The position numbers and the translations under genes were made by a program. From assembly GCA_026745465.1 (NCBI GenBank), contig JACYXH010000363.1:2113501-2177500 (forward strand): a DNA stretch of 64,000 bases, read 5' to 3'. The notes beneath the pieces are model-generated. The model searched no databases. It was not told the DNA's origin and was given only the letters and a program-made list of their open reading frames with translations. Below are positions 37,701 to 43,700 of the stretch, piece by piece (positions within the stretch are counted from its first letter, which is position 1; every line of letters begins with the position of its first letter). The stretch comes from Lota lota. Its lineage: Eukaryota; Chordata; Actinopteri; Gadiformes; Lotidae.

Positions 37701-40700
37701 ACAGGTTTATTCCTTACATAGAATCTATGGGCCAATAACCTCAAACTAAGGTCAACTAGATGTCAATCTTCTTGTACAGTTCCGTCCATCCTACGCCTTC
37801 TCAAAAGTGGAAAAACGGGAAATTGTTGCTCAAGCATTCATTTTTTGTTATTTTAAGTGTATAGTGTGTGTGTGTGTGTGGGGGTGGGGGGTATTCATAA
37901 ACAATTCTGGCTAGTTGTTTACGTGTCGTAGGAAGCAGCGGCCCACACGCAGTGGGTCCTTGGCGCAGCTCTCCAGCTCCTTGAGGAACGTGTGCCGGTG
38001 GAAGTCGTGCAGCTTCTCCAGGTTCCCGAAGATGACCCCCCTCTGGCCCCGCAGGTCCTGGGGCACATCGGCCCGCTCCAGCTCGGGGAAGTAGTGCTCT
38101 CCGACGTAGCCCAGGGCTCGCACGTACTCCCTCTCGGTGCACAGCAGCTCCTCTATGATCTTCCGCAGCTTCCTGTGAGGAGCAGAGAGAGCGTGAGGCC
38201 CATAAGAGGGGGCTCTGAGGGGCTGCTTTCTCAAGAATAGATCTCGTCAACGTCCAGCAAGGCTTCAGAATTTCAGCCAATTTGCCTTATTTATTCTTTG
38301 AGCTTTTAAAAAAAAGCTAAATATTTCCCTTGATGTCCTACCGAAATGTTGACTGAAATGTTTAAATGGAAGGTGGAACCCATTAAACAATTAGTGTAAT
38401 GAATTATGCAGTCACTTGACTGGAAAGCAGAAAGTGTCACAATAAAACTTTATTTATCTTATCTAAAAACATCATATACTCACAAAATGTTGTTGCTCAT
38501 TTGCTCTGCGGTGGGGCCAGTCAGGGCGTCCGTCTGACCGCTTTGTTCCCGGGGGTTTCGGGGCGCGACCGCAGGGTCTGTCGGAGGAAGAGGGCAACCC
38601 CTTTCTCCTTTACCCTCGCTATCCGACTCAACACGCAAGTCGCCTAAACAAAAACTGTGATGAGAAGAAATGGATGCTGAAGTGTTGACTGGCAGCACGC
38701 TGGGACCCAGAGTCTGTCTCCTCATGTGGACGTTGATCCCGGCATCGAAAGGGGAGGGGCTGGGGAAAGATGTCAGACTGGGGTTCACGCACGACCCCTC
38801 GCTTAGAGACCGCCCCAGCCCCTGGTGACTGGGCGACTCTTCCCCCTGACCGAAGGAGTCCACCCTCCTCAGATCCATGTCGCTGTGATGCTCCTTCTGC
38901 CTCCGTCTGTTTCCTACATGACACACCGGCGACACCCCGCTCTGAGGCCCCGCAGCACTCGTCACGACGTCATCCTTAACTGCCGCGCCTGGAAGCCCTG
39001 CGCAGGGATCAAGGGTCGAATGCAGGTCAGGACACTGGGCGACGGATGTGTTTCCTCCATGTTCGCCCTCGCAGCTCTTCTTCTTCTCCTTCTCCCTCAC
39101 CTGGTCCCCTTCTGCGTTATTGACCTCGGTAGAAGAGGCAGGTGACCCCCGGGTCAGAAGGCCTCCAGCCTCCCTCGATTTTCTCCTCTTCTCCACATCC
39201 TCTTCCTCTTCCTCCTTCCCTTCCTCCTCCTTCCTCTCCTTCACCCCGAACTCCCCTCGGGAGGCCACGGCTGGAACCGCCTGGTTCTGCTTCTCACGGA
39301 CACACTTCATCTTCCCACTCTCCCCCAGACGCTGCCTGACTTTCTGGCACTGAACCCAGGCAGCATTCCACACCCGAAGCACCCCGGAGGCCCTGGAGCC
39401 GAGGGCGAGGGCCAGTGTTTTCACAGCCTGGAAGTGCGAGGTGGAGAATTCTCCTGAAAATCTCTCCTCATATTTATTGAGTGTGCTTTGACTGGCCTCA
39501 GTGAGGCAATAGTCCCCCTCTACCTGCTCCAGATAAGGAATGCATTCCTCAGCCAGAGCCGAGGCCTAGAGAGAGAGAGAGAGAGAGAGAGAGAGAGAGA
39601 GAGAGAGAGAGAGAGAGAGAGAGAGAGAGAGAGAGAGAGAGAGAGAGAGAGAGAGAGAGAGAGAGAGAGAGAGAGAGAGAGAGAGAGAGAGAGAGAGAGA
39701 GAGAGAGAGAGAGAGAGAGAGAGAGAGAGAGAGAGAGAGAGAGAGAGAGAGAGAGAGAGAGAGAGAGAGAGAGAGAGAGAGAGAGAGAGAGAGGAGATTC
39801 TTACAACATTTGCAGGCAGCAGACATTGAATTGATTGAATGCAGAGATTTGGAAGCATAATATTTTGTCTCGGTGGGTGCCAAAATAAAAACATTCCAAT
39901 ATCTATGTTGTTCCATTTCACAGAACAGCATGAGGCTATTGCTCCTCAATGCGGTCCATGTTGTCCACAAACCTGTTCACAGAAGCGGTGCAGTTGCGTG
40001 AGGACTTCGAGCTCCTTGCGCTTTGGTTCCACCCGAAGAAGAAGATCGTCCATGTTGGATTTGAAAGTGCTGACCACGGTCCGAAACACGTCCATGGCCG
40101 GGCTGGCGGGGCTGGTGTCCATGATGTTCTGCGCCTCCAGCATGAGAGCCATTGCTGCCTGCTTCTTCTCCTATGGGATATAGACATACAATTTATCGAT
40201 CAGATCCCTTCTGTATGTTTCCTGCTCCTTCTTATATAGACTTAAAGAATACATAGCATATTCAGATTTTAACATTTTACATCTATTTGTATGTACTTAT
40301 TACTGTCCTGTACACACTTATGTGAGTCCCACATTTACCATCTGGGATTGTATGGTGTATAGTAAACATTTTGATTAGCAACAATACAAATCACAGCATT
40401 TCTCCGCGGGATGTCACCCCTGTATGAACACAATACACACATTTGTATTGCGGACAAATCGAAATCATACCAACACCATAATGTTTACCCAACACCATAT
40501 CAAATGTATTCTATATAATGTATTCTATATAATGTATTCTATATTGAGTAACACTACCATGGCCTGTGTGAGGAAGGAGTCGAGGTGCTGCAGGGCCGTC
40601 TCAGAGTCCTTCAGGGTGTCAGGTGCTATGTTTGAGTCCTTCAACGTCTGTTCTCCTTCCTTATTGAACCATATCCCAGCCTACAAGACACACAGGGGAG

Positions 40701-43700
40701 CCATTATTAAAAGAAAACTAATATAAACTACAAATGGTTCATTGCTTGATTCAAATTATCAAGGGCCTTTTTGCTATACTACTCAGTCAGTTGGTAGATC
40801 TTTTTTTACAAAACAACATACAGTGAATACACAATACAGGTCATTCGGGAGCAGGTTGGGGTTAGACTACTTGCCCAAGGATGCCCACAGATAGGCATCC
40901 AGTAATTGAACCAAGAACCTTTTGACTGAAAGTCAAAACAGACAAACCACTACACTGCCCCATAGAACACTTGTAAAAGTGTACAAAGTGTGACAGTACA
41001 TAACCCCCACCAGTACCATGTTGATGTGGCCCTCCACCTCCCGTAGCCTGAGGAGATGCTGCAGGTGCTGCAGCGACTCGTTGGAACACATCACCAGAGT
41101 GTGGAGCTTCTCCTCCAACTTGTTGTACAGGCTGGTGACGGCCTCCACTGCATCTCTGGTTGGACAGGAGCACAACAGCAGCATCATTGATATGTGATTG
41201 TATGATGTTTAAACCTTAGAGTATGAATGATATCGCTGGCTCGGTGGTGGCTTGCTCTGGCTTTGGGAACTAGCCCCAGCATGGCTCTGCTCCGACATTA
41301 GCCTTCTGGTGATGGCAGCTAGGGTCACTAGTCCTTATCAGATTCTGGTATCACCTTTAAGTACACTTCTGGAATGTATACCTGGAACTCTAGCGCAGAA
41401 ACACCCCCCCACCCCCCGACACGCACCAACACCCTACATTCTTTCAAGCAGGGGCATTGGAATACACCGCCTCTCTCTCTCTCTCTCTCTCTCTCTCTCT
41501 CTCTCTCTCTCTCTCTCTCTCTCTCTCTCTCTCTCTCTCTCTCTCTCTCTCTCTCTCTCTCTCTCTCTCTCTCTCTCTCTCTCTCTCTCTCTCTCTCTCT
41601 CTCTCTCTCTCTCTCTCTCTCTCTCTCTCTCTCTCTCTCTCTCTCTCTCTCTCTCTCTCTCTCTCTCTCTCTAGGCCTCGGCTCTGAATGGAACTTCGTC
41701 CCACCCAGAATCTGTACACCTAATCCGTCAGTGCAGACATTGTTACGTTGACCATGTTTGTGTGCAAGACATGTGGTCTGTGTACCTGCTGTCCTCTGAC
41801 TGCTGGAAGCGGAGGTCTTCTCTCCTGAATCTGGCCAGGATGGCTCCTCCTTCTCTCTGCAGAGCGACCAGCCGGCTGTTTTCCAGCACTTCCTTCATTG
41901 AGGTTCTCTGTTCCTGAATGCATTGTTGCACCTCCTACAGGAAACACGCACACGTGCACACACGCCCACACACGTATACACACACACACACACACACACA
42001 AAATGACAAGGCTTGTGTAAGTCCCACGAATGAAGGCAACTAACTAGACATGGTAAGCTTGGAAATGTACCTGTGCGGTGTCCATTGTTTTGGTTTCATC
42101 AACTTTCTTTATGGCCTTTTGAAGCAAACTGTCAGCCCCTTGCAGGTCCGTCGTGAAGGACACAAGCCTCTGGAATAAATTAAGTTCAAAGCAGGTTGGT
42201 CAAATGGAGGAGAAGGAAAGAAATGTTGTATGGATTTATTTGGCAGCTTGCCATGTACAATTTCTTCTTGTAAACAAATACTCCTCTAAGCTATGTGGTA
42301 CAGTATACTTTACAGCAGAACAATTCACACATTCCTCAATGTATAAGCAACATACCATTTATATTATATGATTTACTGTTTGGTTAGTATTGTACCTTCA
42401 ATTCAATTCACCGGACTGATCCTTACTTCACTCAACTACAGAATATCATCCCACAATGATCATACAGGGTTAGGGTTAGGGTTAGGATAAGGGAAGTGCA
42501 GGAAGTGATTAATTCAGTGTCTGCAGAGTATTGCTCAATAGACTTGGATTGAAGCAACAGTTTCCACAGCCTTTCAAGGGTTAGGGTTCATAAATCATAA
42601 ATGTCATTGGTGAGTCATTGACAACTGATTTTCCAATCTTCCTATATCTTATTCAAAGTAGTGGCATGATATTGCAGAGAAGCTTTGAAAGTGGATATGA
42701 CACCTGGTGGAGCTGTAGCCAATCGGTATGGCTGTAGGCAAAGGTCCCGCCCAGGTCACAGGTCAGCTGGGAAGCCTCCACTATCTTGTTGAGTGCTTTT
42801 AAAGAGGTCACCACATCCATCTAACACACAGAGACAAAGACGAGGAAAGAAGTATGAATCAATGTGCAGTGAGAAGAAGAATTAAATGTAAATGTTGCTA
42901 CAAATGTGATTTTCCCCACCTGTAATCCGGGCTGTCTCTCAGGGCGGGGGACGGTGTCTTTGTCCACCAGTATCAGAATACTGTTGACCGCATGGAGAGC
43001 TTGCTCCTGCCACATTAACCCAGGTGTTGGATTAACATGACATGCATGACAAAACATCAACTTTATATATGTATAGGGCTTATAGGCTTATGTCGCAACG
43101 TCACATCGCAATCTCCACCTTCACTTTGGTAGCAGAGGAATAGTGGAATGTTATAGTTATTATGTTAATAGTAATGTTTTTTTGGTCATTGTTTAGTAAT
43201 TAACAATGTAGTAATTGTTGTTTTCTTTTAGAGCTTTTACATCAGAATGCATAACGTTTTTTGTAGGTGATACTCCTCTATATTGAAGGACTCCAGAGAA
43301 TTGTAGTACTGTAAAATCCAAACTCAACATAAATATACTGTAACATAGGCGAATGAAAACGTTGTTTTGGCATGTTTGGCATAAGAAACGCTGTAGCAGT
43401 TTAAAAATGTATTCCCAGAATTACAAAAAGAAATCATAACTAATTACTAAACAATGGTCGAAAAACCAATATACCAACACAATATCTAACATTAGTTTGC
43501 TTACATGCTTCCAAAATGTAGGTCATTGCAATGTGACGTCCCTCACCCCGACCTGCTCCTTAGGTCACTTTGGATAATAGTCTGCTAAAATAAATATGGT
43601 TGATTGTTGGCTCCCCCTTGTGGTACCAAGAAACCTCATCCTGCCAGAAAAGTTGTAACCATTGTATTTCATTCTTTCTGTTTGTGTGTGTGTGTGTGTG

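What the first reader, a model, noticed from the sequence alone, without database searches (positions are those of the whole stretch)
39554..41686. Inverted copy of a splice-site microsatellite flanks kiaa1755 exons 11-13
Seen directly: 39554-39569 plus the following (GA)n (to 39793) is the exact reverse complement of 41671-41686 plus the preceding (CT)n (41470-41672). The shared 16 bases outside the pure array include the exon 14 acceptor AG and the first 12 bases of exon 14. The pre-mRNA would carry (AG)n in intron 10 and (CU)n at the end of intron 13. These could pair over about 200 nt, loop out exons 11-13 (460 nt), and bury the exon 14 acceptor in a duplex. Reverse-complementary intron pairs are a known driver of circular RNA and exon skipping. 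The 16-nt match implies one array was copied from the other, as an inverted duplication.
Basis: partly seen in the sequence, partly recalled or inferred. Interest (0 to 1): 0.78.

Follow-up and report, generated by a model that had tools for sequence, protein, structure and literature searches.

The report
Exon-edge copy beside inverted CT repeats
In a fish gene related to KIAA1755, two long CT/GA repeats lie in opposite directions around three exons, and twelve bases of a neighbouring exon seem to have been copied backwards onto the edge of the other repeat, most likely by a small DNA-repair error; any effect on splicing is untested.

Summary
Window 39554-39769 is the perfect reverse complement of 41471-41686 (216 nt). 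Fourteen of these bases lie outside the pure arrays: the acceptor AG and the first 12 bases of exon 14. CTCTCT plus those 14 occurs only twice in the 575-Mb own genome, both times here. Exons 9-14 splice into one open frame. A paralogue 2.1 Mb away keeps exons 10-14 but has no such arrays.

The origin story needs changing. The intron-10 array follows a ~190-bp repeat whose only other detected copy (75% identical, 4.2 Mb away) also carries (CT)n and then reads CTAG|GGAACTTC. The window reads CTAG[GCCTCGGCTCTG AAT]GGAACTTC. So the array was probably there already, and about 12 exon bases plus AAT were inserted. This fits a short templated insertion by foldback or template switch between two existing inverted arrays better than duplication of a whole array. 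Among 96 pure arrays surveyed, no other pair shares a non-repetitive edge of 8 nt or more.

In silico the pre-mRNA arms pair and bury the exon-14 acceptor. Circular RNA, skipping or any function is untested; skipping exons 11-13 would give a premature stop. Real but modest; an assembly artefact is not excluded.

The parts
39568..39793 (-). Array A: pure (AG)n on +, (CU)n in the pre-mRNA; pyrimidine tract of the intron-13 acceptor
39554..39569 (-). Shared 16 nt at array A: CTAG acceptor edge and first 12 bases of exon 14 (GCC TCG GCT CTG), the probable donor copy
38480..39565 (-). Exon 14 open frame from its acceptor ([14 protein letters not shown]...); the 3' end of the exon was not settled
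   Evidence: paralogue match
39973..40170 (-). Exon 13 (198 nt)
40558..40680 (-). Exon 12 (123 nt)
41017..41155 (-). Exon 11 (139 nt)
41280..41467 (+). Left flank of array B: repeat with one other detected copy in the genome (C363:6388815-6389000, 75% identical), also followed by (CT)n
41471..41672 (+). Array B: pure (CT)n on +, (AG)n in intron 10 of the pre-mRNA
41675..41686 (+). 12 bases identical to the start of exon 14, inverted: the probable templated insertion
41687..41689 (+). AAT: three further bases between the copied stub and GGAACTTC; source unknown
41690..41697 (+). GGAACTTC: the same eight bases follow (CT)nTAG in the other copy of the repeat
41786..41934 (-). Exon 10 (149 nt)

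Best explanation
Two (CT)n arrays arose separately, one as the pyrimidine tract of the exon-14 acceptor, the other at the end of a low-copy repeat in intron 10, and they happen to lie in opposite orientation about 1.7 kb apart. A break or stalled fork at the right edge of the intron-10 array left a + strand 3' end running out of (CT)nTAG(G). That end folded back onto the (AG)n array on the same strand, was extended 11-12 bases into exon 14 (copying 39564 or 39565 down to 39554), came off, and was joined to the old flank GGAACTTC with three extra bases. The result is a short inverted templated insertion that lengthens the perfect duplex over exon-14 sequence. Shown: the sequence match, its uniqueness, and one other repeat copy with its own array and no such insert. 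Inferred: the ancestral state of the site, the break, the foldback, the end joining and the order of events. At the RNA level the pair could fold and mask the exon-14 acceptor, but no function is shown and most likely it is a passenger.
For: The match is one-sided and runs from the array edge for exactly 14 flank bases, then stops. The 20-mer is found only at these two sites in the genome. The other detected copy of the intron-10 repeat carries (CT)n and then CTAGGGAACTTC without the 12 bases. The exact 20-mer CTCTCTCTCTAGGGAACTTC occurs once in the genome, at that copy. 262 of 200,000 random 30-mers from the region contain any of the four test 8-mers of that flank. Exon 14 is a coding exon in an open frame with a paralogue, so it is the likely source. 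Size and geometry resemble the yeast foldback insertions (most ~5-34 bp, imperfect 10-bp inverted microhomology, the other end joined with 0-5 bp) in PMC11724301 (abstract and sections 15 and 22 read).
Against: Only one other copy of the repeat was found, and its sequence to the right of the array is otherwise single-copy, so the shared GGAACTTC is just 8 bases and could be chance at about 1 in 760. At up to 2 mismatches the reversed control of the pattern had 26 matches against 11 for the pattern itself, so only the exact match there tells anything. The two arrays are among the longest seen (226 and 202 nt; the CT-type 90th percentile is 155 nt and the maximum 226; 6 arrays of 150 nt or more in 264 kb), and two such arrays side by side is something a whole-array copy would also explain. 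The foldback loop would be about 1.7 kb, far longer than the 41 nt in the yeast case. AAT has no template that I found. No relative species and no reads could be compared.
Confidence: 0.57

Rival explanations
1. Inverted duplication of array plus edge: a segment of intron 13 end and exon 14 start, array included, was copied into intron 10.
For: Perfect 216-nt complementarity; both arrays are unusually long for the sample; any number of CT units could have been copied along with the stub and would be indistinguishable.
Against: The one other detected copy of the intron-10 repeat already has (CT)n at the same place; the far edges of the two arrays do not match beyond one base.
Confidence: 0.2
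2. Assembly or polishing artefact: reads made mostly of CT repeat and a few exon-14 bases were misplaced at the edge of the intron-10 array and wrote a false 12-15 nt edge.
For: Long tandem repeats are a known cause of assembly trouble in cod (PMC5241972, passages read); the odd AAT; the match is as short as a read overhang would be.
Against: The sequence continues into intron and exon 10 without a gap; the locus was found once with no alternative contig; no other pair among the 96 arrays surveyed shows a shared complex edge, as a systematic polishing error might.
Confidence: 0.15
3. Functional splicing device: the inverted pair promotes back-splicing of exons 11-13 and masks the exon-14 acceptor.
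For: MFE fold pairs 202 of 202 (AG)n bases with the (CU)n array and includes the acceptor AG and 6 exon bases; duplex -505 kcal/mol against -281 and -127 for the two other CU tracts tested. Reverse complementary matches promote back-splicing and skipping in C. elegans, a 13-nt one in zip-2 included (PMC8330042, abstract).
Against: No RNA data. The paralogue with the same exons 10-14 has no such arrays. The circle is 460 nt, not a multiple of 3, and the skip product stops after 97 codons counted from exon 9. Inverted dinucleotide pairs are common here: 46 pairs of arrays of 30 nt or more within 5 kb in 264 kb.
Confidence: 0.15

Closest known systems
Foldback templated inverted insertions at double-strand breaks (yeast, PMC11724301; abstract and sections 15 and 22 read)
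   Same: Short inverted copy (here 12 nt) primed at an inverted homology, the other junction joined with little homology
   Different: Priming homology here would be a microsatellite array and the loop about 1.7 kb; a natural sequence, with no break observed
MMBIR / template-switch insertions (PMC8421209, PMC10766183; search listings and abstract starts only)
   Same: Template switch to a complementary stretch, short templated segment
   Different: No larger rearrangement is seen here
Reverse complementary matches flanking circularised exons (PMC8330042 abstract; PMC8516420 passages)
   Same: Inverted complementary stretches in introns around exons 11-13
   Different: Made of (AG)n/(CU)n rather than transposon pairs; one arm is the acceptor tract itself and runs into the exon; no circular RNA shown
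Dense long dinucleotide repeats of Atlantic cod (PMC5241972, passages)
   Same: Many long dinucleotide arrays near and in genes
   Different: Species of this window not identified; the copied exon edge is an extra

Membership tests
Foldback templated insertion | Inverted copy of nearby sequence | tested here: met
Foldback templated insertion | Inverted homology at the priming point | tested here: met
   (CT)n/(AG)n plus TAG shared at the entry edge; that TAG predates the event rests on one repeat copy
Foldback templated insertion | Pre-insertion site known without the copied bases | tested here: inconclusive
   One repeat copy reads CTAGGGAACTTC; 8-base support, no orthologue available
Foldback templated insertion | Break and repair enzymes involved | not testable with these tools
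   needs an experiment
circRNA-promoting reverse complementary match | Complementary stretches in the two introns flanking the exons | tested here: met
circRNA-promoting reverse complementary match | Back-splice junction reads exon 13 to exon 11 | not testable with these tools
   no RNA-seq held
circRNA-promoting reverse complementary match | Conservation of the pair (supporting, not strictly defining) | tested here: inconclusive
   Absent from the same-genome paralogue; orthologues not available
Whole-array inverted duplication | Recipient site had no array before | tested here: inconclusive
   Points against: the other copy of the recipient repeat has (CT)n in the same place, but it is one copy only

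The most novel reading that the evidence does not exclude
In genomes packed with long dinucleotide arrays, inverted arrays serve as long-range foldback primers: repair at one array copies the edge of its inverted partner, and because (CT)n arrays can be splice-acceptor tracts, this transplants antisense acceptor-plus-exon edges into other introns. Here that would have built a self-made antisense mask over the exon-14 acceptor and a circle-promoting duplex around exons 11-13.
Probability: 0.12. Interest if true: 0.62.

Novelty: new member of a known kind. Interest (0 to 1): 0.33.

Why it matters
If right, it is a germline example of a short inverted templated insertion primed by a pair of microsatellites more than 1.5 kb apart, which shows how such arrays can move splice-site edges between introns. 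It gives a clean test case, with an internal control (the paralogue without arrays), of whether perfect (AG)n/(CU)n pairs change splicing or make circular RNA in repeat-rich fish. The survey suggests it is rare: one pair with such an edge among 96 arrays.

Tried and rejected
Chance match: rejected (2 genome places of the 20-mer, both here, control 0). A widespread element carrying the 16 bases: rejected for the same reason. Known RNA family in the intron-10 repeat: no Rfam match up to E 0.1 in L003 and L004. An alternative contig of the locus: none found. Further copies of the intron-10 repeat: 2 places each by DNA search, the query itself included (the tool says such counts are lower bounds); a looser pattern search for them did not complete. 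Of the 11 places, one (L005) is the L004 copy again; of the other ten (L006-L015) none has a clear match to the repeat's left flank, L014 and L015 giving only short weak ones (48 and 29 nt, E 0.011). Direction of copying from the paralogue's exon-14 start: not informative, the alignment leaves out the first residues.

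Full report
OBSERVATION. The longest perfect inverted repeat is 216 nt per arm with 1701 nt between the arms. The 20-mer CTCTCTAGGCCTCGGCTCTG has two places in the 575-Mb own genome, both here; the reversed control has none.

GENE. The gene runs on the minus strand. Exon 10 is 41934-41786, exon 11 41155-41017, exon 12 40680-40558, exon 13 40170-39973, and exon 14 starts at 39565. 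Exons 9-13 have AG and GT borders and exon 14 an AG acceptor; its 3' end was not settled. Joined, exons 9-14 give one open frame. Exons further downstream encode RhoGEF (PF00621) and an SOS1/NGEF-like PH domain. A paralogue on the same contig at about 56-59 kb keeps exons 10-14 in order, with 67, 61, 35, 32 and 35% amino-acid identity over the aligned parts. The two loci that cover it hold no uninterrupted CT, GA, CA or GT run of 8 units or more. So the exon model is sound and the array pair is not shared with this paralogue.

ORIGIN. The left flank of the intron-10 array, 41280-41467, is 75% identical to one other place in the genome, C363:6388815-6389000, which lies directly before a (CT)n of its own. 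Searching back with that copy again gives only these two places; the tool calls such counts lower bounds. After its array the other copy reads CTAGGGAACTTC; the window reads CTAG GCCTCGGCTCTG AAT GGAACTTC. The simplest reading is that the intron-10 array and its TAGGGAACTTC edge are old, and that 12 bases of exon 14 plus AAT were inserted. The exact 20-mer CTCTCTCTCTAGGGAACTTC occurs once, at that copy; at up to 2 mismatches there are 11 places against 26 for the reversed control, so the looser matches mean nothing. The weak point is that the shared right edge is 8 bases: 262 of 200,000 random 30-mers from the region carry any of four test 8-mers, and the other copy's right flank is otherwise single-copy.

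MECHANISM. A + strand 3' end leaving (CT)nTAG(G) at 41674-41675 can pair with CCTAG(AG)n on the same strand at 39565 and above. Extension would then copy 39564 (or 39565) down to 39554, which is precisely the inserted stub. Short inverted insertions of this type, primed by an inverted homology and completed by end joining, are documented at yeast breaks (PMC11724301: abstract and sections 15 and 22 read). The loop there was 41 nt and here would be about 1.7 kb.

AGAINST IT. Both arrays are among the longest found: 226 nt is the longest and 202 nt is above the 90th percentile (155 nt) of the 33 CT-type arrays, and only 6 arrays of any of the four types reach 150 nt in 264 kb. Two such arrays as neighbours could hint that one was copied from the other.

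HOW SPECIAL. In the window, 200 kb (10 kb N) and 20 kb more I found 33 CT-type and 63 CA-type pure arrays of 30 nt or longer. Edges were compared only for pairs with the same terminal array base (520 CT and 1964 CA comparisons); 17 shared 8 nt or more, of which 16 were repeat-like and one was this pair. Inverted pairs as such are common: 46 within 5 kb among 90 arrays in 264 kb, 11 within 2 kb; at 100 nt or more there are 4 within 5 kb, and at 150 nt or more this is the only one.

RNA. The minimum-energy fold of the 2321-nt pre-mRNA stretch pairs all 202 (AG)n bases with the (CU)n array and puts the acceptor AG and six exon-14 bases in the duplex; the next exon bases prefer a local hairpin. 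The other CU-rich tracts tested (around 43797-43979 and 50448-50502) pair less well, -281 and -127 against -505 kcal/mol, and three control stretches gave -30 to -70. This is thermodynamics on naked RNA; proteins that bind the tract and splicing kinetics are not modelled. The nearest AG upstream of the acceptor is 234 nt away and the two branch-point-like YTNAY words found lie 321 and 366 nt away, so a distant branch point is likely. Skipping exons 11-13 shifts the frame and stops after 97 codons counted from exon 9; the 460-nt circle has a stop in each of the three frames over repeated turns. Reverse complementary matches can promote both outcomes in C. elegans (PMC8330042, abstract), so the RNA idea is reasonable but unproven.

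LITERATURE. I saw no paper on microsatellite-primed copying of a splice-acceptor edge among the titles and abstract starts listed (6 of 6 papers; 12 of 121; 12 of 188; 10 of 120; 11 of 11); that is a limited search.

VERDICT. Observation confirmed. The favoured origin is revised to a short templated insertion between two independently arisen inverted arrays. The splicing role is possible but untested.

Noticed in passing
L041/L043 (C363:54704-60118): A paralogue of the gene on the same contig, about 2.1 Mb away, keeps exons 10-14 but has no uninterrupted dinucleotide (CT, GA, CA, GT) run of 8 units or more in the two loci.
   Followed up: partly
L004 1501-1686 (= L018 8816-9001): Second copy of the intron-10 repeat, ending in its own (CT)n; only two copies were detected and the repeat was not classified.
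   Followed up: partly
L019 3289-3636: Another long (CT)n runs directly into an EGF-like coding stretch (DVNECEETNGGCEALCC), so CT arrays as possible acceptor tracts may not be unique to this gene.
   Followed up: no
43797-43979: Imperfect GA array (CU in the pre-mRNA) upstream of exon 9, a weaker competitor for pairing with the intron-10 (AG)n.
   Followed up: partly
42467-42486: Short telomere-like run GGGTTAGGGTTAGGGTTAGG upstream of exon 9, presumably intronic.
   Followed up: no
L008 around 1210-1570: Minisatellite whose unit contains CTCTCTAGGGAACAAGGAGTT, resembling the edge of the intron-10 repeat.
   Followed up: no
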